DNA of 64,000 nt from Thiothrix sp. UBA5583 (GTDB taxonomy: Bacteria > Pseudomonadota > Gammaproteobacteria > Thiotrichales > Thiotrichaceae): NCBI GenBank assembly GCA_002425225.1, contig DILV01000016.1, forward strand, positions 62,001-126,000, written 5' to 3'. Below the pieces are notes generated by a model. That model saw nothing but the letters and a program-made list of their open reading frames with translations. It was not told where the DNA came from and did not search any database. A program made the translations under genes and the position numbers. Below are positions 13,496 through 38,161 of the stretch, in pieces. Position 1 is the stretch's first letter, and every line of letters starts with the position of its first letter.

Positions 13496-14792
13496 ATTCT
13501 GCTTCCTTTCCAATATAGGTGAAATTGTCATCCTGATTTGTCCACATATCGGCAATCAGGGGCTTGTTGGTTTGTTGCATTATCCAGGGTTTCATGATGC
13601 GGGCAACCTCGAGGAAGACAGGCATCACCACTGAGTTGCCGAACTGCTTGTATGCCCGCGTATCCGACACCGGAATGCGGAAATCGTCCGGGTAGCCCAT
13701 CAGCCGCGCACACTCTCGCGGAGTCAGGCGGCGCGGGTTTTTGCCGTTGCCCTGCCAGACCAGTATTTCCGAACCATCCTTGTAATAGCGTGCGGAAAGC
13801 GTGCGGGCTACGCTGTCGGTATATACCAGCCCGAAACCAAAACCGTTGCCTTTGGCCTTGTGCTTGTCGGCGTAGTCTTGCAGGTATTTCCACAGGTTGG
13901 GGGTTAAGGTGTACTTGTCCTGCACCTTGCGGTTGGCGTGGTCGAAATAGCGGCCTTCATCGTGTTCCAGCACGGGTTCGCTGCCATCCACACGATGCAG
14001 GATGTTGCCCATCGTGATGCGACCCTTGCCCGGCAGTTGTAGCGCATCCCAGCTAAAGCCGGTGGGTTCGCGGAATCCGACAATGACCGTGCGTTCGCGG
14101 TGCTGGGGTGTCCAGTGCTGCCCGTCAATGGTTGTCCAGTGAACCTGATAACCCAGTTCCTCGCGCAATGTATGCAGGATCACCCGAAAGGTCTGCCCCT
14201 TGTCATGCGATTGCAGGTTCTTGACGTTTTCCAGCAAGAATGCACCGGGGCGTTTAGCCTTGATGATGCGTGCCACGTCGAAAAACAGCGTTCCCTGCGT
14301 TTCGTCCTCGAAACCGTGCGCTCGTCCGAGGGCATTTTTCTTGGAAACACCCGCAATTGAAAATGGCTGGCAGGGGAAACCAGCAAGCAAAACATCATGT
14401 GCCGGAATGTCGTCAGCCGAGACAGCGGTAATATCCCCGGCGATGTGTTGCCCGTCGGCAAAATTGGCATGATAGGTACGCTGGGCATAAGCATCCCATT
14501 CACTGGTGAACACGCAGCGCCCACCATTCAGTTCAAATGCCTTGCGGATGCCGCCAATCCCGGCAAACAGGTCAATGAAGGTGAAATCTCCTTGCCCAGC
14601 CTGTTTGCCAAACGGCATCAGCATCTGTTGCAGGCCGTGCAAAACATAAGGTTTGGGTTCTGTTTCACCCTTTGCCCAGCGCCCAATCGTGCTGGGGTTC
14701 ACACCCAGTTCCTTGGCTATCTCGGAATGCGTGAAATACTGTTCTGCTTCTTCAAGACACCTTAAAACAGCAGACTTCCTTGTATCGTACAT
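13458..14792 (-). CDS. dcm: DNA (cytosine-5-)-methyltransferase, Dcm/M.EcoRII type, with N-terminal HTH
   Basis: 444 residues. Residues about 20-50 ([20 protein letters not shown]) form a helix-turn-helix. The methylase core follows: motif [17 protein letters not shown], motif [10 protein letters not shown] with the catalytic Cys, motif [10 protein letters not shown], motif VIII QHRER and motif X KQFGNSVV. Enzymes of this type methylate the inner C of CCWGG, matching the EcoRII-type nuclease and Vsr nearby. The ATG at 14792 has GGAGAG upstream. In relatives such as M.SsoII the N-terminal HTH represses the methylase's own promoter; an inverted repeat around the promoter here fits that. Confidence 0.92.
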
Positions 14793-14804
14793 GAGACTCT
14801 CCAC

Positions 14805-14848
14805 GGGAAACTTTTTTGCATTTTATGATTATAGTTTCCCTTTGACAA
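14805..14848 (-). promoter_or_regulatory. Promoter and candidate self-operator of the Dcm-type methylase
   Basis: Reading the minus strand, TTGTCA (14843-14848) and TAAAAT (14820-14825) are 17 bases apart, a good sigma-70 promoter. A perfect 7-bp inverted repeat, GGGAAAC at 14805-14811 and GTTTCCC at 14834-14840 on the plus strand, brackets the -10 box and the likely start site. A repressor bound there would block initiation. The encoded methylase carries an HTH and is the obvious candidate. Confidence 0.6.
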
Positions 14849-14883
14849 TCCATTATTCGTTTTTTGTTCGTTACTTGCTGATG

Positions 14884-16152
14884 TCAGGCAAACTTGAATG
14901 TTTGTTGCACTGGCATTCCAGCCGGTAACACTTCATTTCCGCTACACAGTCGGTTCAGAAAATCCACCACTGACAAACCCAGTTCATAGGCCATGTTGGC
15001 AGGCACAGCATTACCAATCTGTTTGTATTGCGAAGTCAATGCGCCTTTGAATTGCCAGTCATCCGGGAAGGTCTGGATACGGGCATATTCGCGCACAGTG
15101 AACGGGCGGGTTTCTTCCGGGTGGCAGCGTTCGGTCTGTTTTTGTGCGGGTGCGCAGGTCAGGGTTAGGCAGGGTTCGTCCCAATGCATCCGCCGTGCCA
15201 TCCCGGTTTTGCCGCCGCCCAAATAGAAACTTTGCAGCATGTAAGCCTTTTGCACATCTTCCGGTAGGTCGCGCCAGTAGCCACCGGGCGGCACTTGTGC
15301 CATGACAGCAGCTTTTTTGGCAGGGTAGGTTTGCCCGGCTGAAACAGGCGCATCGCAGGGGAACAGTTCACCAGCTTTCAGGGCATCTTGCAGTGTGTAG
15401 ATTTTCTGGTAGGGACGAGGCCAGCGGAATTGCACTTTTTCGGCAAGATCATTGCGGATGCCAACCAGCAGCAGGCGTTCACGTTTTTGTGGTACGCGGT
15501 AGAAAATAGCTTTCATCAGGTGTGGCTCAATCAGTGTGTAGCCTAATTCGTCGATGACGGAACGGATATTTTCCAGCGTTTTGCCGTCGTCATGATTGAG
15601 TAATCCGCGCACGTTTTCTGCCATGAACAGCTTGGGGTTGGTTTCCTTGACAGCGCGGGCGAACTCGAAAAACAGTGTGCCACGGGCATCTTCAAAGCCC
15701 ATTTTTTTGCCTGCATAACTGAATGCCTGACAAGGAAAACCACCTGTCACCACATCAATTTGGTCATGGTATGGAGTGAAGTCCAGCTTGCCAATATCAC
15801 CACATTGCACATTCCAGTGGGGGCGGTTGGCTTTTAGGGTGGCGCAGGCATCCTTGTCAATCTCGTTGAGCAGCACCGTTTCCAGCCCTGCTTTTTCCAG
15901 CCCGATAGCCAAGCCACCCGCACCTGCGAACAGTTCGATGGTTTTGTAAGTGTGGTCAGGGGTGATATGGGGGCGGTTGGAATCATCGAAGATGAAGTGC
16001 AGTTCCTCAAACTGTCGCAGTTGCTCTTTCTGGTAATAGCGATAGTTGTTCATGGGGTTGCGGGTTGGGCGCAGCTTCCCACTGTTGTCCCAGCGACGTA
16101 GCGTTTCTTTGGATACACCCAGCATATCGGCAACTTGGGCAACAGAGTACAT
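14884..16152 (-). CDS. DNA (cytosine-5-)-methyltransferase fused to a MerR-type HTH
   Basis: 422 residues. The first 55 residues (SVAQVADMLGVSKETLRRWDNSGKL, then NYRYY) are a MerR-family winged HTH. The methylase domain starts near residue 70 with TIELFAGAGGLAIGLEKAG (motif I), then GGFPCQAFSYAGKK (motif IV), MAENVRGL (VI), VPQKRERLLLVG (VIII) and KQIGNAVP (X). It lies next to an Eco47II-type nuclease, so the pair probably recognises GGNCC; this specificity is inferred from the partner. The fused MerR-like domain may regulate the R-M genes. Confidence 0.88.
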   Translation of the reverse strand: MYSVAQVADMLGVSKETLRRWDNSGKLRPTRNPMNNYRYYQKEQLRQFEELHFIFDDSNRPHITPDHTYKTIELFAGAGGLAIGLEKAGLETVLLNEIDKDACATLKANRPHWNVQCGDIGKLDFTPYHDQIDVVTGGFPCQAFSYAGKKMGFEDARGTLFFEFARAVKETNPKLFMAENVRGLLNHDDGKTLENIRSVIDELGYTLIEPHLMKAIFYRVPQKRERLLLVGIRNDLAEKVQFRWPRPYQKIYTLQDALKAGELFPCDAPVSAGQTYPAKKAAVMAQVPPGGYWRDLPEDVQKAYMLQSFYLGGGKTGMARRMHWDEPCLTLTCAPAQKQTERCHPEETRPFTVREYARIQTFPDDWQFKGALTSQYKQIGNAVPANMAYELGLSVVDFLNRLCSGNEVLPAGMPVQQTFKFA

Positions 16153-24107: not shown

Positions 24108-24123
24108 TGGCACACCCCTTGCA
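24108..24123 (+). promoter_or_regulatory. Sigma-54 promoter of rtcB
   Basis: TGGCACACCCCTTGCA fits the RpoN consensus closely, with GG (24109-24110) and GC (24121-24122) ten bases apart. Transcription should start near 24133, 30 bases before the rtcB ATG. In E. coli and Salmonella rtcBA is also sigma-54 dependent and activated by RtcR. The identical 16 bases recur at 36496-36511. Confidence 0.85.
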
Positions 24124-24162
24124 ATATATTAAGCATCACTAACGACAAGCAAGGAACACACC

Positions 24163-25395
24163 ATGAGCACTACCGCTACTTCCTACGAAGTCCTCCATGA
24201 AGCTGGTCACGCGCCTGTTAAGGCGTGGACAAAAGGCGTGCCTTTCGACGACAACTCCAAAAAACAATTGCTGAACATTGCCAAGATGCCGTTTATTCAC
24301 CAGTGGGTGGCGGCGATGCCGGATGTGCATCTGGGCAAAGGTGCGACGATTGGCAGCGTGATTCCAACCGTGGGGGCGATTATTCCGGCGGCGGTGGGGG
24401 TGGATTTGGGCTGCGGGATGATGGCGGCGAAAACCACCCTGACCGCCGCCGATTTGCCCGATTCCTTGGAGGCAATGCGCAGCAAGATTGAGCAAGTGGT
24501 TCCGCATGGGCGCGTGGCGACTCGCGGTCAGCGCGATACCGGCAGTTGGGGTGATCCGCCGGACGATGTGCTGGAAAAATGGCTGGGTTTGAGCGCGGGT
24601 TTCCAGCGCTTGTGCGAGAAACATCCGTTCCTGAAAAACACCAATAACCTGAAGCACTTGGGGACGCTGGGGACGGGCAACCATTTCATCGAGGTGTGTC
24701 TGGATGAAACCCAAACCGTGTGGGTGATGTTGCACAGCGGGTCACGCGGGGTCGGCAATGCCATCGGTACGCACTTTATCGAGCAGGCGAAAAAGGACAT
24801 GGAACGCTATTTCATCAACCTGCCGGATAAGGATTTGGCGTACATCCCCGAAGGTAGCCCGCATTTCCGCGACTACGTAGAGGCAGTGGCGTGGGCGCAG
24901 GATTTCGCGCAAGCCAACCGCGAGCTGATGATGGCGCGTACTTTGCAGGCGATCCGCGAGGTGTTGCCGACCCCGTTCACGGCGGACGTGGAGGCGGTGA
25001 ATTGCCACCACAACTACATCAGCCGCGAACACCATTACGGCAAGGATGTGTGGGTGACGCGCAAAGGCGCGGTGAGTGCGCAACAAGGTCAGCTTGGGAT
25101 TATTCCGGGCAGCATGGGGGCGAAATCGTTCATCGTGCGCGGGCTGGGTAATGCCGAAAGTTTTTGCAGTTGCAGCCACGGCGCGGGGCGCGTGATGTCA
25201 CGTACTGAGGCCAAACGCCGCGTGTCGCTGGATGAGCATAAGCTCGCCGTTGCCGGGGTGGAATGCCGCGTGGATGAAGCGGTGATTGATGAAACGCCAT
25301 CGGCTTACAAGCCGATTGATAAAGTGATGGCGGCGCAGAGTGATTTGGTGGAGGTGCTGCATACGTTGAAGCAGGTGGTGTGTGTGAAGGGGTGA
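24163..25395 (+). CDS. rtcB: RNA-splicing ligase RtcB
   Basis: 410 residues. RtcB joins RNA 2',3'-cyclic phosphate or 3'-phosphate to 5'-OH ends with GTP and Mn2+. Visible features are GVDLGCGMMA with the metal-binding Cys, SGSRGVGNAIG, NCHHNYISREHHYG with metal-binding histidines, GSMGAKSFIV, and SCSHGAGRVMSR, which carries the histidine that becomes guanylylated. The C-terminus reads AYKPIDKVM. All key residues are present, so it should be active. No rtcA or rtcR lies in the window. Fragments of its 3' end occur at 23926 and 35109. Confidence 0.95.
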   Translation: MSTTATSYEVLHEAGHAPVKAWTKGVPFDDNSKKQLLNIAKMPFIHQWVAAMPDVHLGKGATIGSVIPTVGAIIPAAVGVDLGCGMMAAKTTLTAADLPDSLEAMRSKIEQVVPHGRVATRGQRDTGSWGDPPDDVLEKWLGLSAGFQRLCEKHPFLKNTNNLKHLGTLGTGNHFIEVCLDETQTVWVMLHSGSRGVGNAIGTHFIEQAKKDMERYFINLPDKDLAYIPEGSPHFRDYVEAVAWAQDFAQANRELMMARTLQAIREVLPTPFTADVEAVNCHHNYISREHHYGKDVWVTRKGAVSAQQGQLGIIPGSMGAKSFIVRGLGNAESFCSCSHGAGRVMSRTEAKRRVSLDEHKLAVAGVECRVDEAVIDETPSAYKPIDKVMAAQSDLVEVLHTLKQVVCVKG

Positions 25396-25437
25396 GGAAT
25401 GCAGTCGTTTTTTTGATCTAAAAAACTTACAATAAGC

Positions 25438-28400
25438 ATGTTTGTCGTGGATATAAGTGGTGCTTTTATGGATAGGCAAGGATGGTTGGCAAGGTTTCTT
25501 CTACGGGTGCGTGCAACTCAACCTGATGGGCGACCACTGTATGCTTACCAGTGCTCTGACAAGAAATATAACGAACTAACCACGCTAATCCAGCAAGAAA
25601 TTTTGCCTACTTGCAGGAACAATAATTCAAAACTCCAATCATTTGCTGCCCTGTTTTGCCTATATGCAGCCGAAACTTTTCGTCGAAAGCATACTGACGG
25701 GGCGTGGACTTGGGAAACGGTATTCACCCCTCTTGACATTGATTCCCGTCACTGTGACCGCAACATGGATACTTGGGCGAGAATTTGGGTAGAACAGGGG
25801 CTGAAAACATGGAAAAGGCCATTAATACGCTATCAAGAGGGCAAGGGCAATCGAGCCTTCCTTGTCACCATTGCCTGTGAAGGTGGTTTGCCCCTTAACT
25901 TGCTGCACAAACAGAACGCCAACCTAACCCAGTTTTTCCGTTCCGTGCTGGAGCAGTATCATGCGCGAAGGTTTGGCGGGGTGGATGTGGCAGAACAGAT
26001 TGCCAATCAGCGTTCGTTCTTGCTGCCGAGCAGTTTGCGGCAGGATGTTGTGTTCCGGTTGGCAGGTGAATTGATTGCCCAAGTGACAGCCTTACAACAA
26101 CGGGTGGGTGATGCACCTGACCCCATTGTAGCGTTAGACCACTTGAATGGAGAATGGCGTAAACAACTACCGCTCAGTTTGGAGAATGACGCTGCCAAAG
26201 TCCTGCTGACCGGGTTAGTCCGCCAGTCTGGTGAGCTTGTCAGGAATGCTACTGCCCGTGTGTTGTGGCGGGGTTGCTTACAGGAATCCTTACAGGGTTG
26301 GCAGGTGTGGAAGCTGCTGGATTTTCCCGAAAGGCTGAGTGATGAACAGATGGCTTCTTTGTTGGCATCTACGGAATCATCATCTGCACCACGTTTCAGG
26401 ATGGTGCTACAAACGCCAGAAGGCAGTGACACAGTGGCATTACTGACCTTGCACCAACAACATGAACGTAACTTTTATCGCCGTGAGTGGTTACACCGTG
26501 CCGGGACTGTCAGGTTGGATAGTGGTCGGGTTGGTTTACCCCACAAGATTCTGTTAAGTGCTGCGAATGTCAGTTATTCAGTTCCTGTCCATAATGATGA
26601 GCCGTGGGGAGATCTGCCGTGGGTATTTGTTGGTGGGGAAACCGACGGCAAATGGGAATGGCTGACCGAAGGTTCCGCCAAAACCAAGCAGGAAATTGCC
26701 TTGGTGGCTGTGACTGGCGGTTTTTCCCCGGCAGTGGTAAATGGCGGGGAAGCCTTGATAGTTGGTTCCATCCCGTCAATTGGACGTACTTTATACAGAG
26801 TGACAGGTGAAGCCAGGTTCCATTCGTCAACAGGTGATAGTTATTTTGTCCGTTGCCGAGCTGAAACAGACTCGGATGAGAGTTACAGGCTGGACGGCAA
26901 TACAGTCTTTGAAGCATTGAATGAGCAGCTTATATTCCAAGGGCTTCCCCGCATCAAAGCAACCACACAAACACAACCGATATACGAACCCAAAGGCAAA
27001 GTGCAATGGCGTCCTTTTTATGAGGCTGGTACGTGGCGCACGGGTGAGGCAGGTTGCTGTGGTAGGGTTTGGCTTCGCTTTATAGATGAATCAGGCGCGG
27101 AGCGCCTCCGGCGGCAAGCAGACATTGTGCCTCGTGCGTTCCATATCACACGCACAGTAGGATCGAATCTTGCCGCAGGCAGCTATCGGCTTCGCAGTGT
27201 TGATCATGCCCATGTTTTAAGTCCAGCCAAGCCTGTTATAGAAGTCCAGCCTATGGGTGATGGCATCCAGTTGTCTTGTCCTTTCATCCACGATGCCAGC
27301 CTTGAACCTATCCGTTTGCGTTTGGCGTGGTCGGGGGCGGAACCATTTGAAATGATGTTGCCCTATCCACAGCGTGGTGCAGTATTTACGTTTGACGGCA
27401 AAATCCTGCCTGACCATTCCGTAGTGCCATTGGGGCGTTTGGGTGGTCTGCAATTGCTCATTCAAGACCAAACTGATAGCGGCAGATTTGCCTTGGATGT
27501 TGCTTTGGAAGGCAGCACCCTTGGGTTCAAACAAAAGTTGCCACCACTGCAACGCGGCAGTTTACAATTTTTGCTGGATAGTGAACGTGACAGGCTTACC
27601 TCATTGCTGGCAAGCACTCATACGAAAGATATATCAGTAAAAATTCAGGTCATGTCGGGTGGAAGTTGCCTTGCAACCGTCGTCGTAGCCCGCTTTGATG
27701 TGGCGATGCAGCCAGACCGGAAGCAATGTCTTGTAAGCATCAGCGATAAATCTCTGCAACGGCTGGGTGATGGTTGGCAATCCCGCATCCGCATGGAAAT
27801 GATTCCCTTGTGGAATCCCGGCAGTGAACCCATTTCTCTCACAACTATTGAAGGAAATGATGCAGTTTGGGGGATTCCTTCCGATTTGTCGCCTGGGCCT
27901 TGGTGGATTATCGGAAGGGATGGCAATTGGGCACGGTTTCGTCCGTTGCTGTGGACTGCCAGAAATGTTGAGGAAGGAACAGATATTGCTGCGGAGGAAG
28001 ATGCACCATCCCTTGAGGCAATTATTAAAATTGTGGATGAACAACAGCGTAAACAACACCTCCATAATTTAATGCAGGCTTTGGGCGGCAATCCTGAACA
28101 TCCAGACTGGGAATTGATCACCATCTATATAGGGCTTTCCAGCGAATTTCCACCTAGTACGTTGGATGTATTGACCCATTTGGTGGAGCATCCCGCAACC
28201 TTGGTTTTATTGCTACTGAAATCCAATGAGGATGACTTTAATAGAATTTGGTCACTGTCAGAGCAAATGCCTTTCTCATGGAGCTTAATTTCAGCAAAGA
28301 CATGGGCAGACACAGCCCATTTGTACTACAGCTCGCTGCGAAATTCGTTGGCGGCATTTGATTGGGGTGAACAAACGGTTGAGGATAGCTTCAAGCAGTT

Positions 28401-28857
28401 CTATCGGCAGATGACCGAACAGCGTCCGTCATGGCTACCTTTGGGTGACTGGCTTCAGGAACAGTTATTTCCTAAAGCCCCCGTCAATGGAACTAGCTTG
28501 CTTTGGCAGGCAAGGTTAAGGGGTGATGTCCAGCTAAAAGAGATCATTAGGCAAAACGAAGAAGGCTTGCAGGGACGACACAATGCTGATGAGCAATGGC
28601 CTGTCAGTAACGAAGTGATGAAATTGGTTAACCATTTAGAAGAATTTCATCGCTACCAGCGCCTAAACAATCATTTGCGCCCAGTCCGTTGCGCCCCCTT
28701 CGTGGCGGCATACATCTGCCTCAATGGAATTGAACCGTCCTCTCTATTGGTTTACGAACTAAGGCTTATACGTGCCTTTGATCCAGAATGGTTCTTTGAA
28801 ACTTACCGCATTGCCATGGCACTAGGATTGGCTAACTATCTAAAGGAGAAGCGTTGA
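25438..28857 (+). CDS. druH: Druantia type III DruH-like protein (STY4851/ECs_5259 family)
   Basis: 1139 residues; an in-frame ATG at 25468 (MDRQGWLARFLLRV) is an equally good start, and neither has a strong ribosome site. It belongs, from memory of the family, to the large STY4851/ECs_5259 proteins that always precede a giant DUF1998 helicase. No enzymatic motif, membrane segment or zinc cluster is seen. The N-terminal PDGRPLYAYQCSD and a long beta-rich middle (about residues 330-850) are the main visible traits. The TGA is followed directly by the GTG of the helicase gene, so the two are translationally linked. Base composition is more AT-rich than the flanking core genes. The defence role is inferred. 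Confidence 0.75.
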   Translation: MFVVDISGAFMDRQGWLARFLLRVRATQPDGRPLYAYQCSDKKYNELTTLIQQEILPTCRNNNSKLQSFAALFCLYAAETFRRKHTDGAWTWETVFTPLDIDSRHCDRNMDTWARIWVEQGLKTWKRPLIRYQEGKGNRAFLVTIACEGGLPLNLLHKQNANLTQFFRSVLEQYHARRFGGVDVAEQIANQRSFLLPSSLRQDVVFRLAGELIAQVTALQQRVGDAPDPIVALDHLNGEWRKQLPLSLENDAAKVLLTGLVRQSGELVRNATARVLWRGCLQESLQGWQVWKLLDFPERLSDEQMASLLASTESSSAPRFRMVLQTPEGSDTVALLTLHQQHERNFYRREWLHRAGTVRLDSGRVGLPHKILLSAANVSYSVPVHNDEPWGDLPWVFVGGETDGKWEWLTEGSAKTKQEIALVAVTGGFSPAVVNGGEALIVGSIPSIGRTLYRVTGEARFHSSTGDSYFVRCRAETDSDESYRLDGNTVFEALNEQLIFQGLPRIKATTQTQPIYEPKGKVQWRPFYEAGTWRTGEAGCCGRVWLRFIDESGAERLRRQADIVPRAFHITRTVGSNLAAGSYRLRSVDHAHVLSPAKPVIEVQPMGDGIQLSCPFIHDASLEPIRLRLAWSGAEPFEMMLPYPQRGAVFTFDGKILPDHSVVPLGRLGGLQLLIQDQTDSGRFALDVALEGSTLGFKQKLPPLQRGSLQFLLDSERDRLTSLLASTHTKDISVKIQVMSGGSCLATVVVARFDVAMQPDRKQCLVSISDKSLQRLGDGWQSRIRMEMIPLWNPGSEPISLTTIEGNDAVWGIPSDLSPGPWWIIGRDGNWARFRPLLWTARNVEEGTDIAAEEDAPSLEAIIKIVDEQQRKQHLHNLMQALGGNPEHPDWELITIYIGLSSEFPPSTLDVLTHLVEHPATLVLLLLKSNEDDFNRIWSLSEQMPFSWSLISAKTWADTAHLYYSSLRNSLAAFDWGEQTVEDSFKQFYRQMTEQRPSWLPLGDWLQEQLFPKAPVNGTSLLWQARLRGDVQLKEIIRQNEEGLQGRHNADEQWPVSNEVMKLVNHLEEFHRYQRLNNHLRPVRCAPFVAAYICLNGIEPSSLLVYELRLIRAFDPEWFFETYRIAMALGLANYLKEKR

Positions 28858-31800
28858 GTGACTACCCCCAAACTTTTCTATGCCACTTTGGCAGAGCAAT
28901 TGACCAACCGGGCTAGCCGCTCTGTTTTGGGTTTGACCGGATTCCGTAACGATGCCCTACGTAACTACCTTGATGAACAATTCAGGCAGAAGCCGGGTAT
29001 GGCAGGTGCTTTGCTAGCCGATCCAGTGTTTGAAGCCACTTTTGGTTGGAAACAATCCGCACAACAAATGCGGGACTTGGGAGGAACACTGCTTAATTCC
29101 CAATTATTGGCAGCACTGGACAAACCAGAAAAGAAGCATACAACGGAAGACTACGCTTTCCCGCTGGAAAGGCATCCTTACCAACACCAGTTGGAGGCGT
29201 GGAGCAATTTGCTACAGGAAAACCCACGACGTTCCGTTTTAGTGAGCAGCGGAACAGGCTCAGGTAAAACGGAATGCTTTCTTGTGCCAATCCTCAACGA
29301 CTTGGTGAATGAAGTCGAGCAAAAGAAAAACGCCTCTTTGACAGGGATTCGGGCGTTGTTCCTCTACCCACTGAATGCGCTCATCAAAAGCCAAAAAGAC
29401 CGCTTGGTGGCATGGTCAGAACCCTTCGGTGGTAAGCTGAGATTTTGCCTCTACAACGGCGATACACCAGAAAATAACAAAAAGAATGACTGGAAATGCG
29501 AGGTTGCCACCCGTGACACCTTGCGCAACAACCCGCCACCTATTCTGGTAACAAACACCACTATGCTGGAATACATGTTAGTTCGGGATAAAGATCGACT
29601 TATCATCGAACAATCACAAGGTAAACTGCGCTGGATTGTTATTGACGAAGCTCACACGTATCTAGGTTCTCAGGCCGCAGAGTTGACCTTGTTATTACGC
29701 CGTGTTCTTCATGCCTTTGGATGCAAACCGACCGATGTACATTTTGTTGCAACTTCTGCAACCTTGGGCGATAACAGCGAGGCATCCAAACAACACCTTG
29801 CCAAATTCCTAGCTGATATTGCTGGAGCCTCAGTCTCCCAAATCTCAGTAGTCACTGGTGAGCGTGAAGTGCCAGAACTGCCTGACAATCTACTGAATCA
29901 GAAGGAACAGCGTCCTTCTTTGCAAAAACTCTGGGAGATGTCGGCTGCTGACAAATTTGATGCTTTAGCAAAAGACCCCGTTACTCGTAAATTACGTACC
30001 CAGTTGATAGGCGGGGCTAACAAGCTAAGTACCTTGACGGAATCCTTGTACGGTAACAGCCCCGCCGAAAATGATTGGCGCACGACACTGGCATTAATCG
30101 ACTGTTGCACTCAGGCCAATAAAAAAATCGACACAGAATCCACCCCATTTTTACCGTTGCGGGGACATTTCTTCCAGCGCACGTTGAATGGCATTTGGGC
30201 TTGCTCTAACAATCATTGCCAAGGTCGCTCAGGTACACAGTTGGACAGTGATAAGTGGTCATTTGGGGCAATCTTTTTGGAGCGTAGGCAACACTGCCCT
30301 CACTGCGAAAGTCCTGTTTTTGAACTGGTGCAATGTGGTGAATGTGGTTCCGAATACTTGGCAGCCGATGAAAAGCATGAAGATGGTAAAGAATGGTTGC
30401 GGCCTCGCCAATCCTTTCAGGATGAAGATGAATTTCAACAAGAATTAGAAGTCCCGGAAGATGAAGATACTGAGCTAGCTTCAACATCACCTAGGCATTC
30501 GGCTCAACTAAAACGTTTGCTGACCAGCAGTGCGCTATCAACAAGTAGTACGTCATCAATAAGAACCATATCGTTATCCTCGGCAGGTCAGGTGGATGGG
30601 ACAGATATTAAAAAATTCACCGTCTATTTGACTGATGATGATAATGAATGCCCTTTTTGTCATGCCAAAAAAGAACTTCACGATACCCCATTATGTCGCT
30701 CCGTTCGAGTTGGTGCGCCATTTATGTTAAGTACAGCGATTCCAACATTGCTTGAACCGCTCTCTCCGATGAAAGGTAGTGAGCCACGCCCGCTAGATGG
30801 CAGGAGGTTGATTACTTTTACCGATAGTCGCCAAGGTACAGCCCGTTTTGCAGCCAAATTGCAGCAGGATAGCGAACGGGATTATGTACGGAGTCTCATT
30901 TATCATTATTTGGCTGATAGTGCGAATACAACTACGGCATCTGCTTCTGATAAAGATGACTTACTGAAGCGAATAGAAGAATTGGAGAAAATTGTAAAAT
31001 CAAGTCCAATTCTAAAACCCACACTAGAAGCAGAAAAATCAAAATATGAGGCTCTTAACAAGAACTCATTGGGGCAACTAGCATGGCAAAAAATGGAGGA
31101 AAAATTACTGCTAACTGACGATGTTGATCGTTGGTTGCTAAGTGATCTTAAAAAACTGACTTTTGAACAATTTTCCAAGGATAGGGAATATGCAAGATTA
31201 TGCTTGTTACGGGAGTTTTTTGCGCGGCCTAAGCGGCAACTGTCGCTAGAAGGACTGGGACTAACTCAGTTGATCTATCCCAAACTATTCAAATCAGAGC
31301 CTAGTACACTTTTCAAAAGTCTAAATGTCAATAAGGCAGAATGGCAAACATTGTTACAGGTGGCAGTTGATTATTTATTAAGAACTGGTGGTTCTACGAT
31401 TAATGTCACACGTGAATATGCCCGCTGGCTAGGTTATCCTGCTCGTCCAATGTTTATTCTTAAACCGGGCGAACAAAGAAAATCTCCTAAAATTCAGCGT
31501 TATTGGCCATCTAGTAAGCAGATTTTATTCTATAGAAACCGTTTGGCAAGGTTGCTGGCCTATGCTTTCAAACTGGACTTTGAACAGAAAGAGCATGTCG
31601 CACGACTGGATGAAATGCTATCAGACATCTGGAATGGCATCTTTGTTATATTGAGCAAATCTGCTGATGGTTATTATCTAGACCTTGATGAACAAGCCGA
31701 ACTATCCCAAGTCAACGAGGCTTGGTTATGTCCCGTAACCCGCCGCGTACTCCCGGTGGCCTTTCGTGGCATTACACCTTACTTGCCATTTAATCCCAAA

Positions 31801-34800
31801 GATGCAGAATTAGTTATCTGTCAGAAAGTCACTATTCCTATTGTTCCCTCTGCATTCCCGAATGATGTGGCATCCATCAACGACTGGCTTGAAAATAATC
31901 CCGACATAATCAAGTTGAGACAGCTAGGCATTTGGTCTGATGTAAATGATCGTATTGTTAAATTTAGTCGCTACTGGCGAGCAGCAGAGCATTCGGCGCA
32001 AATTTCAGGCAATGATTTGACCCGACGTACCGATAGTTTCAAAGAAGGTAAAATCAATCTTCTGAGTTGCTCTACAACCATGGAAATGGGGGTGGACATT
32101 GGTGGTTTGAGTGCTGTTGCGATGAATAATGTACCACCTCACCCCGCTAATTTTTTACAGCGTGCGGGGCGTGCTGGACGAAGAGGGGAAACGGCAGCGG
32201 TCAGCTTTACTTTGTGTAAAGCAACTCCACACGGAGAGGCGATTTTCCATAACCCACTCTGGCCTTTTACAACACAATTGGCTATGCCAAAAGTTGCTCT
32301 GCAAAGCGAACCCATCGTACAACGTCACATCAACTCTTTGGTGTTATCCGAGTTCCTGGCTGAACGTACTAACGATACTGTAAATAGGCTAACACTAACT
32401 AGTGGGTGGTTTTTTGAATCAGCATCTGAAGAAAACTCTGCTTTATACGAGGTATTTAAGAATTGGTGTCTACAGGAAGCGCATAAGAAACCTTCCATTA
32501 ATGAGGGATTGGTCAGCTTGACTAAGCATTCTATCCTGCAAGGTCGTGAGGTAGCCTATTTGCTGGAGCGTTCCTGTGAAATGCTAGATAGAACTGCTGC
32601 CCGCTGGCTGGTTGATCTCAATGCGTTGATTGAACAGCGAGAACTAGTCAAAACCAGCAAAGGCAATAGCAAACCTGAACAGGCACTGGATTTGCAACTG
32701 GATCGGTTGCGCGGCGAATATTTGCTGGGTGTGTTAGCCACACTCGGCTTCTTGCCGGGTTATGGTTTTCCGACAAATGTTGTCCCTTTCATTACCACAA
32801 CAGCAGAGGACTTGGAGCACAAGAAAAAAGCAAAGAATGAACGCGAGGACAATCGGGCAAAACGGGCTGGTTATCCAAGTCGTAACCTTGCCGTCGCCAT
32901 CCGTGACTACGCACCGGGTACAGATACCGTGCTGGATGGGCGTGTATACCGCAGTCAAGGCGTAACTCTGAACTGGCAATTGCCTGCCGAAGTGGAAACT
33001 GCCCCTAAAATCCAAGCATTGAGATATGTCTGGCGGTGTGATTCTTGTGGCAATAATGGGATACGTCCAGTTAAACCCGACTCTTGCCCGCACTGTGGAG
33101 AAACCAATACGAGCAAAATAACCACTAGCCAGTTTCTACAACCTGCCGGATTTGCCGTCGGAATACGGCATAAAGTGCATAATAACGTTACCACTCCTCA
33201 ATACATCCCTGTACGCGATCCGATGATTTCGTTACGTCACGCTGACTGGATGGCATTACCAAATCCACAATTTGGGCGTTACCGCAGCAGTAACCAAGGG
33301 CATCTTTTCCATCACTCTGATGGTCTGCATGGGAAAGGTTATTCTGTGTGTCTGGTTTGTGGCTGGGCTGATTCCGTGACCGTTGAGGGTGAAGAAATAA
33401 AACGTGCTGCCAGCTTAGAGAACCACCGCCGATTACGAGGTGGTAAAAACGATGATAGGGAAACAGCCTGTCCCGGCAATGACCGTGATTGGGCGATTAA
33501 AGATGGGTTGCTGCTGGGTGTATCAACACAAACTGAAGTATTTGAACTCCAATTGTGGGATGAGCAAGGCAAAGGCATTAATCAAGTCGTTGCTCATACT
33601 TTGGCTGTGGCGTTCAGGCGTGCATTATGTATGGAACTGGGTATTGAGGAGTCAGAAGTCGGTGCATTCGCATCCCAACGCAGGGATCAAGGGAGATTAC
33701 CTACTTACTCCATTTACCTGTACGACACGGCAACAGGTGGTGCAGGTTATTCCACCCAAGCGGTAGCATTGCTTGATACGCTGTTTAAACGTGTTCATGA
33801 AAGTGTCTTACCATGTCCAAAAGAATGCGATAGTGCTTGCCAAGCCTGCCTGCTGACCTATGATACTCAGCACCATGTTGATCATTTGAACCGTCATGAG
33901 GCAAACACCTTGTTGGAAAGTGGTTTGCTCCATTCAATGGTTTTACCGGAGGCATTAAGGGTATTTGGTGCAGCAACGAAATTTGAACTGGAGCCGCTGG
34001 CGTTAGCCCTAAACCGTGAATGGCAACACCATGACTTCAAGGAGGTCAGGATTTACTTCGGGGGGGATGTTTCCTTATGGGAACCTCTGGCTTGGCGGTT
34101 AAGACATGACCTAATTCGTTTGCGGGAAACTGGGACACTCGTGCGATTTGTATTAACTTCATCCATGCTCCAGCAACTGGAGGCTAGCCAAAAGAGTGAG
34201 CTTAATGCCCTCATTACCTTTATCGGTGCAGAGGTGTATATGGGGGAAATAGGTAGCACACCCAATACTCCCGTTGTAATGGAAACTGGTGGTCAGGATG
34301 AGAGCATCCGTTGGGCTGCTAGCCATCCAGATGCACTTGCCCCGACTCCTGCGTGGGGTGTTACAGGTTATGCAGGCAGCCAATTTGTCAGGACTCATCT
34401 TACTACTGCATTACCTGCCATCCATTCAAGTTGGCAAAAGGTTGAACCTACCGCATTGCATCCAAGCATTCCCGCTGGTACTACCGAACTTGTCATCACG
34501 GATCAGTTCAACGGCGCATCCACTTTGTTTGGCAAGCAGGCATGGCAGGCGGTTTGTGACAACATACCAGCATTGGCAAAGCAGCTTGCCAGTGGTGCAC
34601 CATTAGTGGAGGTACGATATTCTGATAGGTATTTGCGCTCCCCTTTGATGTTGCTGCTACTCAATAGTTTGTTGCAAGGTTTAGGGCAATATACTGGCGG
34701 TTTGGTGAAAGCAACCTGCGTTACAGTCGTAACCTCACAACTTAATGACAACAGGAGCGGATACCCTAGACTGCTGCATCATGATTGGCTGGAAGATGGG

Positions 34801-35100
34801 GAACGCCGCCAAGTTGCCGAACGCTTGTTTAAGATCAACTTGCCTCATTTTGAATGGTTATCGAAAGAAAATAAGCAACTGCCCCACGCTCGTGAATTGG
34901 AATTGGTATGGAAAGATACCCGCTGGCTTGTCCGTTTAGATCAAGGTGTTGGTTATTGGGGATTACAACGTTACGTGCGTTCAGATTTTCCATTTGACCA
35001 AGCTGTTCAGGAACAAGTCAAATTCTTGCACAGCCGAGGTTTCCAAGTTGAACAAATGGATAAACGACATCCGACTTATTGGTACTTCAGGCAGCAATAA
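28858..35100 (+). CDS. druE: Druantia-type giant helicase DruE (DEAD/DEAH, DUF1998)
   Basis: 2080 residues, starting with GTG immediately after the druH stop; AAGGAGAAGC in the druH end serves as ribosome site. Superfamily 2 helicase motifs: SSGTGSGKTEC (Walker A, near residue 130), VIDEAHTYLGSQ (DEAH, near 262), VATSATLG (near 297), and TTMEMGVDIGG with QRAGRAGRRGE (near 1070-1110). Cysteine pairs near 450-500, 597-613 and 1394-1415 suggest zinc ribbons. The DUF1998 cysteine cluster CPKECDSACQACLLTY lies near 1655. The last 400 residues contain VEVRYSDRYLRSPLML and may be a phospholipase-D-like or related domain; this is tentative. With DruH this is the two-gene make-up of Druantia type III anti-phage systems. 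Confidence 0.85.
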   Translation: MTTPKLFYATLAEQLTNRASRSVLGLTGFRNDALRNYLDEQFRQKPGMAGALLADPVFEATFGWKQSAQQMRDLGGTLLNSQLLAALDKPEKKHTTEDYAFPLERHPYQHQLEAWSNLLQENPRRSVLVSSGTGSGKTECFLVPILNDLVNEVEQKKNASLTGIRALFLYPLNALIKSQKDRLVAWSEPFGGKLRFCLYNGDTPENNKKNDWKCEVATRDTLRNNPPPILVTNTTMLEYMLVRDKDRLIIEQSQGKLRWIVIDEAHTYLGSQAAELTLLLRRVLHAFGCKPTDVHFVATSATLGDNSEASKQHLAKFLADIAGASVSQISVVTGEREVPELPDNLLNQKEQRPSLQKLWEMSAADKFDALAKDPVTRKLRTQLIGGANKLSTLTESLYGNSPAENDWRTTLALIDCCTQANKKIDTESTPFLPLRGHFFQRTLNGIWACSNNHCQGRSGTQLDSDKWSFGAIFLERRQHCPHCESPVFELVQCGECGSEYLAADEKHEDGKEWLRPRQSFQDEDEFQQELEVPEDEDTELASTSPRHSAQLKRLLTSSALSTSSTSSIRTISLSSAGQVDGTDIKKFTVYLTDDDNECPFCHAKKELHDTPLCRSVRVGAPFMLSTAIPTLLEPLSPMKGSEPRPLDGRRLITFTDSRQGTARFAAKLQQDSERDYVRSLIYHYLADSANTTTASASDKDDLLKRIEELEKIVKSSPILKPTLEAEKSKYEALNKNSLGQLAWQKMEEKLLLTDDVDRWLLSDLKKLTFEQFSKDREYARLCLLREFFARPKRQLSLEGLGLTQLIYPKLFKSEPSTLFKSLNVNKAEWQTLLQVAVDYLLRTGGSTINVTREYARWLGYPARPMFILKPGEQRKSPKIQRYWPSSKQILFYRNRLARLLAYAFKLDFEQKEHVARLDEMLSDIWNGIFVILSKSADGYYLDLDEQAELSQVNEAWLCPVTRRVLPVAFRGITPYLPFNPKDAELVICQKVTIPIVPSAFPNDVASINDWLENNPDIIKLRQLGIWSDVNDRIVKFSRYWRAAEHSAQISGNDLTRRTDSFKEGKINLLSCSTTMEMGVDIGGLSAVAMNNVPPHPANFLQRAGRAGRRGETAAVSFTLCKATPHGEAIFHNPLWPFTTQLAMPKVALQSEPIVQRHINSLVLSEFLAERTNDTVNRLTLTSGWFFESASEENSALYEVFKNWCLQEAHKKPSINEGLVSLTKHSILQGREVAYLLERSCEMLDRTAARWLVDLNALIEQRELVKTSKGNSKPEQALDLQLDRLRGEYLLGVLATLGFLPGYGFPTNVVPFITTTAEDLEHKKKAKNEREDNRAKRAGYPSRNLAVAIRDYAPGTDTVLDGRVYRSQGVTLNWQLPAEVETAPKIQALRYVWRCDSCGNNGIRPVKPDSCPHCGETNTSKITTSQFLQPAGFAVGIRHKVHNNVTTPQYIPVRDPMISLRHADWMALPNPQFGRYRSSNQGHLFHHSDGLHGKGYSVCLVCGWADSVTVEGEEIKRAASLENHRRLRGGKNDDRETACPGNDRDWAIKDGLLLGVSTQTEVFELQLWDEQGKGINQVVAHTLAVAFRRALCMELGIEESEVGAFASQRRDQGRLPTYSIYLYDTATGGAGYSTQAVALLDTLFKRVHESVLPCPKECDSACQACLLTYDTQHHVDHLNRHEANTLLESGLLHSMVLPEALRVFGAATKFELEPLALALNREWQHHDFKEVRIYFGGDVSLWEPLAWRLRHDLIRLRETGTLVRFVLTSSMLQQLEASQKSELNALITFIGAEVYMGEIGSTPNTPVVMETGGQDESIRWAASHPDALAPTPAWGVTGYAGSQFVRTHLTTALPAIHSSWQKVEPTALHPSIPAGTTELVITDQFNGASTLFGKQAWQAVCDNIPALAKQLASGAPLVEVRYSDRYLRSPLMLLLLNSLLQGLGQYTGGLVKATCVTVVTSQLNDNRSGYPRLLHHDWLEDGERRQVAERLFKINLPHFEWLSKENKQLPHARELELVWKDTRWLVRLDQGVGYWGLQRYVRSDFPFDQAVQEQVKFLHSRGFQVEQMDKRHPTYWYFRQQ

Positions 35101-36384: not shown

Positions 36385-36407
36385 ATAGATTCCTATCTTT
36401 ATAGATA
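36385..36407 (+). promoter_or_regulatory. Putative upstream activator site of the tRNA-like/slipin transcript
   Basis: ATAGATT, two bases, TATCTTTA, two bases, GATA, matching the rtcB site at 23996-24018 in 19 of 23 positions. The inner TATCT/AGATA half-sites are a perfect dyad here. It ends 90 bases before the -24 GG, against 91 for rtcB. It also abuts the start of the divergent 145-residue gene and could repress or activate it. Confidence 0.6.
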
Positions 36408-36495: not shown

Positions 36496-36511
36496 TGGCA
36501 CACCCCTTGCA
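36496..36511 (+). promoter_or_regulatory. Sigma-54 promoter of the tRNA-like/slipin transcript
   Basis: TGGCACACCCCTTGCA, identical in all 16 bases to the rtcB promoter. GG is at 36497-36498 and GC at 36509-36510. The expected start is near 36521, giving a leader of about 475 bases before the slipin ATG. The 617-base stretch from 36381 to 36997 has no protein gene but holds this promoter, its activator site and the structured RNAs listed next. Confidence 0.85.
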
Positions 36512-36541
36512 TTACCATTCACGACTTTCGTTACTCGTGGA

Positions 36542-36559
36542 GCAGGTTCAAATACCTGC
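36542..36559 (+). ncRNA. T-arm-like hairpin at the start of the slipin leader
   Basis: GCAGG and CCTGC form a 5-bp stem enclosing TTCAAATA, which contains the tRNA T-loop sequence TTCAAAT but has eight bases in place of seven. It lies about 20 bases after the predicted start. No matching D-arm or acceptor was found, so it may be a third, degenerate tRNA-like part or a coincidence. Confidence 0.35.
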
Positions 36560-36611
36560 CTGACGCGCCCACCACTGGTGTACCCGCGTATCTGTTTCAG
36601 AAGTCCCCAAC

Positions 36612-36674
36612 GCAGCTATAGCTCAGTGGTAGAGCAACCGCAAGGTGGTCATGGGTTCGAGCCCCATTAGCTGC
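36612..36674 (+). ncRNA. tRNA-like RNA 1, anticodon arm replaced by a GCAA hairpin
   Basis: 63 nt. Acceptor GCAGCTA pairs fully with TAGCTGC. TA, then D-arm GCTC/GAGC with loop AGTGGTA (conserved GG). The T-arm ATGGG/CCCAT with loop TTCGAGC is perfect. Where a tRNA has a 17-nt anticodon arm there is only ACC-GCAA-GGT, a 3-bp stem with a GNRA loop. No CCA is encoded. It cannot decode, yet the T- and D-arm features that tRNA enzymes recognise are kept. It is transcribed from the sigma-54 promoter ahead of the slipin gene. Confidence 0.75.
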
Positions 36675-36677
36675 TCC

Positions 36678-36745
36678 TTACCATAGCTCATTTGGTAGAG
36701 CACTTGATTTGATCAAGCTGTAGTGGGTTCGACTCCCACTGGTAA
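36678..36745 (+). ncRNA. tRNA-like RNA 2, shortened anticodon loop
   Basis: 68 nt, three bases after the first element. Acceptor TTACCA/TGGTAA (6 bp), TA, D-arm GCTC/GAGC with loop ATTTGGTA, arm CTTGA-TTTGA-TCAAG with a 5-nt loop where tRNA has seven, variable CTGTA, and a perfect T-arm GTGGG-TTCGACT-CCCAC. It is two anticodon-loop bases and one acceptor pair short of a tRNA and has no encoded CCA. A normal decoding tRNA is unlikely. It could be a tRNA mimic or a cleavage substrate. Confidence 0.75.
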
Positions 36746-36780
36746 AACTACCCTTTTACGGTAGCCTAGCCCGCAAGGGC
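36742..36780 (+). other. Overlapping alternative hairpins after the tRNA-like pair
   Basis: GTAAAA (36742-36747) can pair with TTTTAC (36754-36759), competing with the acceptor strand of tRNA-like RNA 2. Alternatively CTACC (36748-36752) pairs with GGTAG (36760-36764). A further stem GCCC-GCAA-GGGC follows at 36769-36780. The remaining 200 bases before the slipin ATG are GC-rich with no ORF that I believe and only weak further hairpins, such as CGTG...CACG around 36820. Confidence 0.45.
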
Positions 36781-36997
36781 AAACAACGGCAAACCACCAC
36801 GGTCAACGCCCGACGGCAGTACGTGTTTCGGCACGGATTACCCGACAGCGACGACCAACACCCGCGCCGCCTTGACGGTGGGTCTGCGGGGTGCGAAACC
36901 GCCACTGCTTCGGCTCACGCGGCTTTCCCACCTCGCACAAATCGTCAAGCCTGCACGGGTGTGGGGGAATGCCACCCAATTTTTACAGGACAACGCC

Positions 36998-38161
36998 ATG
37001 TTATTCAAAACCAAAATCATTGTTCCAGAAACACATCGCGGGCTGTTGTTCAAAGACGAACAGTTCGTTGAAATCCTGCCTGCGGGTGTCCACACCTTTT
37101 ACGGCTGGAAAAACCAGTATCGCGTCCAGCAATTCGCCGTTACTGGCAGTGCGCAAACCTTTGTGCCGGATGATGTCGTCAGCCTTGCTGATTTGCACCC
37201 TGAAAAATTCGCGGCGCAAATCCAACGCTGGGAAACCAGCGAACAGGAAGTCGGCTTGCTGTACCAAGACAATGTACTGAAAGACATCAAGCCGCCCGCG
37301 CAACGAGGCGCGTACTGGCAAGGTCAGCGCAGCATCGAAATCCGCAAGCTCGACATCAGCACCGATTTCAAGCTGCCAAAAGCCTTGGCAAGCCAATTGC
37401 TGGCAGCCAAAGACCCCATATTACGGGCGGCGGTGCTCAACGCGATGGCTATTGCCATCATCCCGGAAGGCCATAGCGGTTTTCTGGAAGTTGACGGCGA
37501 ACAGCACGCCATGCTGACAGCGGGTACGCACGTTTGGTGGAGGTTCAACCACACCATCGAAGCAACCCAGTTGGATTGCCGCTTGCAAAACATGGAAGTC
37601 AACGGTCAGGAAATCCTCACTAAAGACCGCGTAGGCTTGCGTATCAACCTTTCCGCCATGTGGCAGATTGTTGACCCGCAGCAAGTCAAAACGGCACTGG
37701 CAGACCACAAGGACTACTTGTACCGCGAACTGCAACTGGCGTTACGCGCCGTGGTTTCCACCCAAACGCTGGACGAATTGCTGGCAGACAAAAACCTGCT
37801 GAACCAATCCATCCAGCAAATAGTTGCGGAAAAAGCGGCCGCTTACGGCATCGACCTGAAAACCGTCGGGGCGCGTGACATCGTATTGCCCGGTGATATG
37901 AAGGCGATTTTGGCGCAAGTCGTCGAAGCCGAAAAACGCGCCGAAGCCAACCTGATTCGCCGCCGCGAAGAAACGCAGGAAACCCGTTCCCTGCACAACA
38001 CCGCCAAGGTCATGGAAGGCAACCCGGTCTTGCTGCGCCTGAAAGAGCTGGAAATCCTCGAAAAGATCACCGGACGCATCAGCACCCTGAATGTCTACGG
38101 CGGTCTGGATGGTGTCATGAACGATCTGGTCAAGCTGACCGACAAGGGCAAAGCCGCGTAA
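36998..38161 (+). CDS. Slipin (SPFH/band 7 family) protein
   Basis: 387 residues from the ATG at 36998, with ACAGGA upstream; the frame is open further but would enter the structured leader. Key segments are IVPETHRGLLFKDEQFVEILPAGVH-type repeats (two such: also IIPEGHSGFLEVDGEQHAML), the SPFH core LTKDRVGLRINLSAMWQIVDP, and a helical C-terminal part VVEAEKRAEANLIRRREETQETR that should form a coiled coil for ring assembly. Unlike membrane slipins it lacks a clear N-terminal membrane helix. Slipins are repeatedly found in RtcB RNA-repair loci; this one shares promoter and activator site with rtcB. Confidence 0.88.
   Translation: MLFKTKIIVPETHRGLLFKDEQFVEILPAGVHTFYGWKNQYRVQQFAVTGSAQTFVPDDVVSLADLHPEKFAAQIQRWETSEQEVGLLYQDNVLKDIKPPAQRGAYWQGQRSIEIRKLDISTDFKLPKALASQLLAAKDPILRAAVLNAMAIAIIPEGHSGFLEVDGEQHAMLTAGTHVWWRFNHTIEATQLDCRLQNMEVNGQEILTKDRVGLRINLSAMWQIVDPQQVKTALADHKDYLYRELQLALRAVVSTQTLDELLADKNLLNQSIQQIVAEKAAAYGIDLKTVGARDIVLPGDMKAILAQVVEAEKRAEANLIRRREETQETRSLHNTAKVMEGNPVLLRLKELEILEKITGRISTLNVYGGLDGVMNDLVKLTDKGKAA

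What the first reader, a model, noticed from the sequence alone, without database searches (positions are those of the whole stretch)
36612..36745. Pair of tRNA-shaped RNAs without a functional anticodon loop in front of a slipin gene
Both elements fold with perfect D-arm and T-arm and full acceptor stems, yet the first has only a 3-bp, GCAA-capped hairpin in place of the anticodon arm and the second has a 5-nt anticodon loop. Neither can decode. They sit three bases apart in a sigma-54 transcript of an RNA-repair locus. Enterobacterial RNA-repair operons encode Y RNAs with a tRNA-like module, so mimicry of tRNA has precedent there, but no Ro60-type gene is seen here. They may titrate damaged-tRNA sensors, act as bait for tRNA-cutting toxins, or be substrates for RtcB or end-processing enzymes.
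Basis: partly seen in the sequence, partly recalled or inferred. Interest (0 to 1): 0.85.

Follow-up and report, generated by a model that had tools for sequence, protein, structure and literature searches.

The report
tRNA-mimic RNA of repair operons
In front of a slipin gene of a Thiothrix-like bacterium lies a DNA stretch predicted to make a roughly 455-base structured RNA, matched as a whole by no Rfam family, that carries two tRNA look-alikes whose loops are too short to read codons; relatives of it sit before slipin genes of RNA-repair loci in many bacteria, where it likely works as a tRNA mimic that recruits tRNA-handling repair proteins.

Summary
The two tRNA-like folds (36612-36675, 36677-36747) are modules of a predicted ~455-nt RNA (36519-36973) between a consensus sigma-54 site and the slipin start. 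Covariation supports a 5' junction, two tRNA-like bodies and a large 3' domain. A T-arm lies within 700 nt upstream of slipin in 88 of 103 loci (shuffles: mean 0.6, maximum 3). Rfam has no family for the whole RNA. D- and T-arms are conserved; anticodon loops are not. Body 1 lacks a 5-bp/7-nt arm in 50 of 72 parsed cases; body 2 keeps one in 28 of 47, with changing triplets. A separate hairpin (window 36748-36764) carries an anticodon-loop signature, C-U-NNN-A, in 41 of 88 loci (shuffles: mean 0.4, maximum 3). rtcB and this RNA have identical sigma-54 sites; 61 of 80 slipin loci have rtcR and/or rtcB in the DNA fetched. Most likely a tRNA-elbow mimic that docks repair proteins (inferred). Boldest reading: a built-in broken-tRNA tripwire. 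No expression data were available, and three key papers were not held.

The parts
36393..36407 (+). palindrome CTATCTTTATAGATA, candidate upstream activator site (RtcR suspected)
   Evidence: only match in the window with up to 2 mismatches, none in 100 shuffles; TATCT..AGATA-type palindromes before rtcB and before the RNA in several relatives, by eye; binding is inferred
36496..36511 (+). sigma-54 -24/-12 promoter TGGCACACCCCTTGCA
   Evidence: exact consensus; identical copy before rtcB; a strict match lies within 700 nt upstream of slipin in 19 of the 78 loci with enough upstream DNA, window included, against 0.004 per locus in single-base shuffles
36519..36609 (+). 5' junction domain of the RNA
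   Evidence: 14 pairs, 5 with two-sided changes; model R1 matches 36 of 81 sources at E < 0.001, 17 of them its own training sequences, and reaches none of L051-L084
36612..36675 (+). tRNA-like body 1, anticodon arm reduced (3 bp with GCAA, or 5 bp with an AAG triloop)
   Evidence: Rfam tRNA 51.7 bits; covariation in acceptor, D, anticodon and T stems among relatives
36677..36747 (+). tRNA-like body 2, 5-nt (or 3-nt) anticodon loop
   Evidence: Rfam tRNA 54.0 bits; covariation in acceptor, anticodon and T stems; the D stem has no two-sided change
36748..36764 (+). detached anticodon-stem-loop mimic CTACC-CTTTTAC-GGTAG
   Evidence: 7-nt-loop hairpin just after a T-arm unit in 51 of 88 loci; U33 48/51, C32 46/51, A37 45/51, positions 34-36 variable, 25 different stems; shuffle control
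36769..36780 (+). GNRA hairpin GCCC-GCAA-GGGC; in some relatives a similar hairpin is followed by a third T-arm
36788..36973 (+). large 3' domain closed by GGCA/UGCC and adjacent C-G pairs, ending 24 nt before the slipin start codon
   Evidence: 36 pairs, 24 with two-sided changes among 16 sequences, 0 of 500 shuffles on all five measures
36998..38161 (+). slipin (Band_7/SPFH) gene with an N-terminal extension of SPFH1-like beta modules
   Evidence: Pfam PF01145, 104.6 bits; AlphaFold model, mean pLDDT 81.8
24108..24123 (+). identical sigma-54 promoter before rtcB (same regulon suspected)
24163..25395 (+). rtcB, RNA ligase
   Evidence: PF01139 match of 435 bits at G000:C25:86265-87392

Best explanation
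The two elements are modules of a conserved ~455-nt structured RNA, predicted to be the leader of the slipin transcript in an RtcR-type RNA-repair regulon, and the RNA likely works as a tRNA-elbow mimic that docks tRNA-handling repair proteins. Shown by sequence: the covarying multi-domain fold, its place directly before slipin, the conserved D- and T-arms, the unconserved anticodon loops, the detached anticodon-like hairpin and the shared sigma-54 site. Inferred: RtcR switches it on when broken tRNAs accumulate; the T-arm/elbow modules are bound by tRNA-recognising enzymes of the same regulon (RtcB, RlaP, RtcA) or by RNase P/Z; the 5' and 3' domains would hold further partners, slipin being the first candidate. 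This would be the same kind of role that the tRNA-like part of the Y RNA YrlA may have in rsr-yrlBA-rtcBA operons. Docking at the elbow needs no decoding loop, which would explain why that loop is free to shrink or change.
For: Covariation in all three parts. T-arm within 700 nt upstream of slipin in 88 of 103 loci, against a mean of 0.6 and a maximum of 3 in 50 shuffles, 0 on the reverse strand and 0 in the first 700 nt of the slipin genes. The RNA stays before slipin in both gene orders: rtcB before it in 27 and after it in 31 of 80 loci. In 17 close relatives T-loops are 88-90% identical and D-arms 87-90%, anticodon loops 35% and 57% (the first figure is lowered by gaps). Body 1 lacks a 5-bp/7-nt anticodon arm in 50 of 72 parsed cases; tetraloop caps occur in L082, L101 (GAAA), L099 (GCGA) and L102-L104 (UUCG). 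Rsr/Y RNA and slipin/RNA look like alternatives: of 13 RtcR loci 4 have slipin, 3 have Rsr, 6 neither, none both. RlaP relatives lie in 24 and RtcA relatives in 30 of 80 slipin loci.
Against: No expression, processing or binding data were available. The partner is unnamed. Strict linkage to slipin fits a plain cis-acting leader as well. The minimum-energy fold of the window sequence alone does not show the cloverleafs. Body 2 keeps a 5-bp/7-nt arm in 28 of 47 parsed cases. R1 does not reach L051-L084, so a shared 5' domain there rests on a similar motif seen by eye. In an E. coli and a Subdoligranulum-labelled leader only T-arms are seen by eye, but neither R1 nor R2 matches them, so they are weak support. 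19 of 80 slipin loci have neither RtcR nor RtcB in the DNA fetched, some because contigs end.
Confidence: 0.4

Rival explanations
1. Broken-tRNA tripwire: the detached anticodon stem-loop would be cut by the same nucleases that cut tRNA anticodon loops; the 5' fragment, carrying tRNA-like bodies and ending in a 2',3'-cyclic phosphate, would bind the RtcR CARF domain and amplify the response, and RtcB would reseal the leader and restore the slipin message.
For: C32-U33-A37 loop in 41 of 88 loci against a shuffled mean of 0.4 and maximum of 3 in 200 rounds, with 25 different stems and 22 different triplets among the 48 U33 loops. In Salmonella RtcR binds 5' tRNA halves ending in cyclic phosphate, and tRNAs Trp(CCA), Tyr(GUA), Cys(GCA), Phe(GAA) are mostly cut after position 36, apparently between two adenines (PMC7790460, passages); 16 of the 48 U33 loops carry one of these four triplets (noticed after the fact, no control).
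Against: The hairpin was not found in 37 of 88 loci, among them 20 of the 21 loci from L052 to L082 with a T-arm; the exception, L076, lacks the signature. Fragments of the Salmonella YrlA RNA were not detected after DNA damage (PMC7790460, passage). No cleavage data.
Confidence: 0.2
2. Plain cis-acting leader: the RNA folds to control stability, processing (RNase P/Z cuts at the tRNA-like bodies) or translation of the slipin message, without acting in trans.
For: Found only upstream of slipin: the five class-sample R1 hits are all slipin-adjacent (the window and three genomes already in the set are among them). The distance from the 5' domain to the slipin start is 479-520 nt in 17 relatives.
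Against: The 3' domain ends 24 nt before the start codon and does not pair with the Shine-Dalgarno site in the consensus fold. The size and number of modules exceed what a processing leader needs (judgement). Most of the loci were found through slipin, so a bias towards slipin is built in.
Confidence: 0.23
3. Spare tRNA genes for a damage response, as in the stress-induced trn operon of Anabaena, here partly altered.
For: Some slipin loci carry many ARAGORN-called tRNAs in the DNA fetched (L040 18, L041 14, L049 21, one of each being the leader's own). In Anabaena a trcR deletion raises rtcB and a slipin gene, and TrcR represses a 26-tRNA operon (PMC10272220, passages). Body 2 keeps a 5-bp/7-nt arm in 28 of 47 parsed cases.
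Against: 73 of 127 parsed bodies lack such an arm (strict parser, so an upper bound), 33 of the 54 that keep it have U33, and the triplets scatter over 20 kinds. The window's two bodies have no 7-nt loop.
Confidence: 0.05
4. Decayed tRNA genes without function.
For: Degenerate anticodon arms.
Against: Compensatory changes in acceptor, anticodon and T stems and in the flanking domains; T-arms before slipin in 88 of 103 loci against at most 3 in shuffles, including 7 of the 8 sampled genomes outside the window's class.
Confidence: 0.02

Closest known systems
YrlA / bacterial Y RNAs of rsr-yrlBA-rtcBA operons (Rfam RF02553)
   Same: Non-coding RNA with a tRNA-like module in an RtcR-controlled RNA-repair operon.
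   Different: No Rsr relative was found in the slipin loci held; the module here reads as an ordinary-order cloverleaf present in 1-4 copies in a larger RNA; the YrlA score is 30.1 bits against a cut-off of 69 and runs across both bodies.
Transfer RNA (Rfam RF00005)
   Same: Acceptor, D- and T-arms; scores 51.7 and 54.0 bits.
   Different: No 7-nt anticodon loop in the window; part of a structured leader; anticodon triplets not conserved among relatives.
tmRNA
   Same: tRNA-like part within a longer RNA; tmRNA is a reported RtcB target in E. coli (PMC9650030, passages).
   Different: No tmRNA call in the window; tmRNA_permuted 12.9 bits against a cut-off of 47.
Anabaena trn operon with TrcR, rtcB and slipin
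   Same: tRNA genes, rtcB and slipin under one stress control (PMC10272220, passages).
   Different: 26 tRNA genes, a repressor (TrcR) instead of RtcR, genes at separate places.
Vault particle (major vault protein and vault RNA)

Membership tests
functional tRNA gene | cloverleaf with acceptor, D- and T-arms | tested here: met
functional tRNA gene | 7-nt anticodon loop with U33 | tested here: not met
   window loops are 4 (or 3) and 5 (or 3) nt; 73 of 127 parsed bodies lack a 5-bp/7-nt arm
functional tRNA gene | aminoacylation and decoding | not testable with these tools
   no wet data
Y RNA (YrlA) | reaches the Rfam cut-off of RF02553 | tested here: not met
   30.1 bits against 69; three sub-threshold matches in G000 and none over the cut-off
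Y RNA (YrlA) | partner Rsr (TROVE) gene in the locus | tested here: not met
   no PF05731 match in G000; tblastn of one Rsr protein at E <= 1e-5 hit none of the slipin loci held then
Y RNA (YrlA) | Ro60-binding stem and tether to PNPase | not testable with these tools
   -
tmRNA | tmRNA fold with tag-peptide reading frame | tested here: not met
   no ARAGORN tmRNA; tmRNA_permuted 12.9 bits against 47
RtcR-controlled RNA-repair locus | RtcR, RtcB and a sigma-54 promoter in the genome | tested here: met
   RtcR on contig C3, RtcB, two identical sigma-54 sites
RtcR-controlled RNA-repair locus | RtcR binds and activates this promoter | not testable with these tools
   palindromes only

The most novel reading that the evidence does not exclude
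RNA-repair operons carry their own broken-tRNA detector: a leader RNA that takes a tRNA apart into non-decoding bodies and a separate, fast-changing anticodon stem-loop. Toxins or phage-response nucleases that cut tRNA anticodon loops cut this loop too; the released 5' piece, with tRNA-like bodies and a cyclic-phosphate end, drives RtcR, and RtcB mends the leader to let slipin be made.
Probability: 0.17. Interest if true: 0.92.

Novelty: new variant of a known kind. Interest (0 to 1): 0.77.

Why it matters
Slipin is a recurrent, unexplained neighbour of RNA-repair genes in the loci seen here; this work gives it a constant RNA companion with a testable, tRNA-based function. The substrates and signals of bacterial RtcB/RtcR remain an open question, and an operon-encoded RNA that copies tRNA parts, including a free anticodon loop, makes it directly testable. 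A slipin-RlaP locus with a reduced, T-arm-bearing leader is present in about 30% of complete E. coli genomes (1,621 of 5,426), which may allow work in that species if the leader proves related.

Tried and rejected
Rejected: decayed tRNA genes (covariation); YrlA, tmRNA, Plastid-ycf2 and other Rfam families (below cut-offs); one permuted tRNA spanning both bodies, as the YrlA match suggests (the acceptor strands do not pair across bodies; by eye). A vault-like slipin was considered; the N-terminal domain alone gave no Foldseek match at E <= 0.001, and VIA's best rows were SPFH proteins, so it stays a lead. Phage records hold no relative of this slipin at E <= 1e-20.

Literature: searches, 95 of the open PMC library gave no paper describing this RNA in the listings or passages seen; three papers that could hold it (recalled titles: RNA repair in biological conflicts, NAR 2016; 224 candidate structured RNAs, NAR 2017; bacterial Y RNAs mimic tRNAs, RNA 2014) are not held, so prior description is not excluded.

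Selections made before counts: the structural alignments use 17 sequences that I chose from 34 aligned (16 in the 3' part; L027 dropped because its start codon was misplaced). The T-arm parser found none in 15 of 103 loci; 14 of these have an R2 match in the fetched DNA: ten before the first of two tandem slipin copies, L011, L038, a cut-off match in L030, and L070, whose match is a tRNA-Lys nt upstream and may be an ordinary tRNA; L105 ends at the contig edge. Bodies whose acceptor strands the parser did not pair are left out of the 127 (27 of the second units, for example), and some of these have normal-looking loops (L041, L102, L108). The hairpin search looked after every T-arm, took the nearest hairpin within 14 nt, and left out loops with GGT, GGC or TAGCT to avoid D-arms (the same in the shuffles); the 51 include a few misfits such as L076, L094 and L108. 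Some of L091-L112 come from the same genomes as L005-L084, so loci are not independent. Of 15 RtcR-positive genomes 12 were taken (13 loci); one contig-end fragment and two sub-threshold matches were left out. The outputs were cut in display; counts come from the stored results.

Full report
What is there. The window lies in a Thiothrix-like genome: two named Thiothrix slipin relatives are 93-94% identical, and the window is contig C25:62001-126000 of the held genome. At 36612-36675 and 36677-36747 Rfam's tRNA model scores 51.7 and 54.0 bits. The first has, for an anticodon arm, either a three-pair GCAA stub or five pairs with an AAG triloop; the second has a 5-nt (or 3-nt) loop. Neither is the 7-nt loop that tRNAs use to decode (established knowledge). 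Upstream, at 36496, lies an exact sigma-54 site; the same 16 letters occur once more in the window, 39 nt before rtcB, and nowhere else in it without mismatch. RtcR is encoded on another contig, as is a second RtcB.

The elements belong to a larger RNA. A scan for relatives of the slipin gave 80 loci. The upstream DNA of many of them aligns with the window over about 480 nt. With 17 chosen sequences the 5' junction, both tRNA-like bodies and the following hairpins give 62 consensus pairs, 31 of them changed on both sides in at least one sequence; 98.8% of cells pair, against 24-37% when partners are slid. The 3' domain gives 36 pairs in 16 sequences, 24 with two-sided changes, 94% paired. Shuffles of the pairs reach these values in 0 of 500 cases, except the count of pair types in the 5' half (15 of 500). 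A single-sequence energy fold is stable (z -4.43) but does not by itself form the cloverleafs.

Spread. Among 103 slipin loci (window, 80, 22) 88 have a paired GGTTCRA T-arm within 700 nt upstream. The same test gives a mean of 0.6 and a maximum of 3 loci in 50 single-base shuffles, 0 on the reverse strand and 0 in the first 700 nt of the slipin genes. Of the other 15 loci, 14 have an R2 match in the fetched DNA, of which L070 may be an ordinary tRNA. 67 loci show two such T-arms, 11 three, 9 one and 1 four. In a drawn sample of the phylum the slipin occurs in 23 of 398 genomes (E <= 1e-30), eight of them outside the window's class; 19 of the 23 have an ARAGORN or Rfam tRNA call upstream, 3 more a T-arm, and one ends at the contig edge. 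The 5' domain model R1 finds 5 of 369 class genomes, one hit each, all before slipin; three of the other four were already in the set. R1 matches none of L051-L084 at E <= 1, so the 5' domain of those loci, though similar by eye, is not shown to be the same. Two gene orders occur: rtcB upstream in 27 and downstream in 31 of 80 loci.

What varies and what does not. In 17 relatives T-loops are 88-90% identical and D-arms 87-90%, but the anticodon loops only 35% and 57%, the first lowered by gaps. Of 127 bodies parsed, 54 keep a 5-bp/7-nt anticodon arm and 33 of those have U33; the triplets fall into 20 kinds. The loss is mainly in body 1 (50 of 72 parsed); body 2 keeps such an arm in 28 of 47 parsed. 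Tetraloop caps of body 1 type occur in L082 and L101 (GAAA), L099 (GCGA) and L102-L104 (UUCG). In an E. coli leader and in a record labelled Subdoligranulum only T-arms are seen by eye; neither model matches them.

A detached anticodon hairpin. Just after the T-arm units a hairpin with a 7-nt loop was sought; the only condition on the loop was that it should not look like a D-arm. It was found in 51 of 88 loci; position 33 is U in 48, position 32 C in 46, position 37 A in 45, positions 34-36 vary, and 25 different stems occur. C32-U33-A37 together occur in 41 loci; in 200 rounds of dinucleotide shuffling under the same rules the mean is 0.4 and the maximum 3. In the window it is CTACC-CTTTTAC-GGTAG at 36748-36764. 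It was not found in 37 loci, including 20 of the 21 loci from L052 to L082 that have a T-arm; several of these carry a third tRNA-like body, which sometimes keeps a normal loop. Within the 17 close relatives four of its pairs never vary, so the support comes from the wider set.

Setting. Of 13 RtcR loci taken from 12 genomes, 4 contain slipin, 3 contain Rsr, 6 neither and none both. The best YrlA matches beside the three Rsr genes are 92 (over the cut-off), 66 and 38 bits (under it). One genome (G305) has a TROVE match and a slipin RNA on different contigs. RlaP and RtcA relatives lie in 24 and 30 of the 80 slipin loci. In the window's genome the slipin-RNA unit stands 11 kb from rtcB, with a Druantia type III pair between. 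Salmonella work shows that RtcR binds 5' tRNA halves ending in cyclic phosphate and that most cuts lie in anticodon loops (PMC7790460, passages).

How it likely works. The conserved parts are those that tRNA-handling enzymes grip at the elbow (established knowledge); the part the ribosome reads is lost or not kept constant. The best-supported inference is a mimic that docks such enzymes, made when tRNAs are being broken, beside slipin. The free anticodon hairpin suggests a second, bolder function as a cleavable reporter. Both are untested. A plain cis-acting leader cannot be excluded, because the RNA was never seen away from slipin, and most loci were found through slipin.

Known or new. Rfam 15 has no family matching the whole RNA. 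It fails the tests for YrlA, tmRNA and functional tRNA. It works like a Y RNA in its setting, by inference, but is not one by the features tested. Open-library searches found no description, yet three key papers were not held.

Noticed in passing
window 24108-35100: A Druantia type III pair (DruH 25438-28857, DruE 28858-35100) starts 42 nt after rtcB and may share its sigma-54 promoter; a CoCoNuT paper reports Druantia III in RtcR-linked superoperons (PMC11090510, passages).
   Followed up: partly
L130 4463-6916: In E. coli a slipin-RlaP pair between DUF3811 and lysC has a sigma-54-like site and a leader with one T-arm; at least 80% of this leader is found in 1,621 of 5,426 complete E. coli genomes. 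R1 and R2 do not match the leader.
   Followed up: partly
L040, L041, L049: 13-20 further ARAGORN-called tRNAs lie near the slipin RNA in Kangiellaceae and Cellvibrionaceae loci, as if spare tRNAs belonged to the same response.
   Followed up: no
L131 2600-2720: A record labelled Subdoligranulum variabile (Clostridia) carries a 32% identical slipin with a similar 5' motif and two T-arms upstream by eye; label not checked, models do not match.
   Followed up: partly
window 36998-37462: The slipin N-terminus seems to hold repeated SPFH1-like beta modules, and the model shows no N-terminal membrane helix.
   Followed up: partly
L040 4626-4705: Two anticodon-like hairpins in tandem (loops CTGTAAA and CTTTTAA) followed by a unit with a GNRA-type hairpin and a T-arm but no full D-arm.
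   Followed up: no
Pseudomonas aeruginosa, literature: An annotated tRNA gene PA4581.1, numbered near the rtc genes, was among the most increased transcripts in a later isolate (PMC8743555, passage); whether it relates to this RNA is unknown.
   Followed up: no
G000:C25:35337-36875: Two RlaP-family matches lie about 25 kb before the window on the same contig.
   Followed up: no
window 12722-16152: A Vsr-type nicking endonuclease and two cytosine methyltransferases in a row.
   Followed up: no
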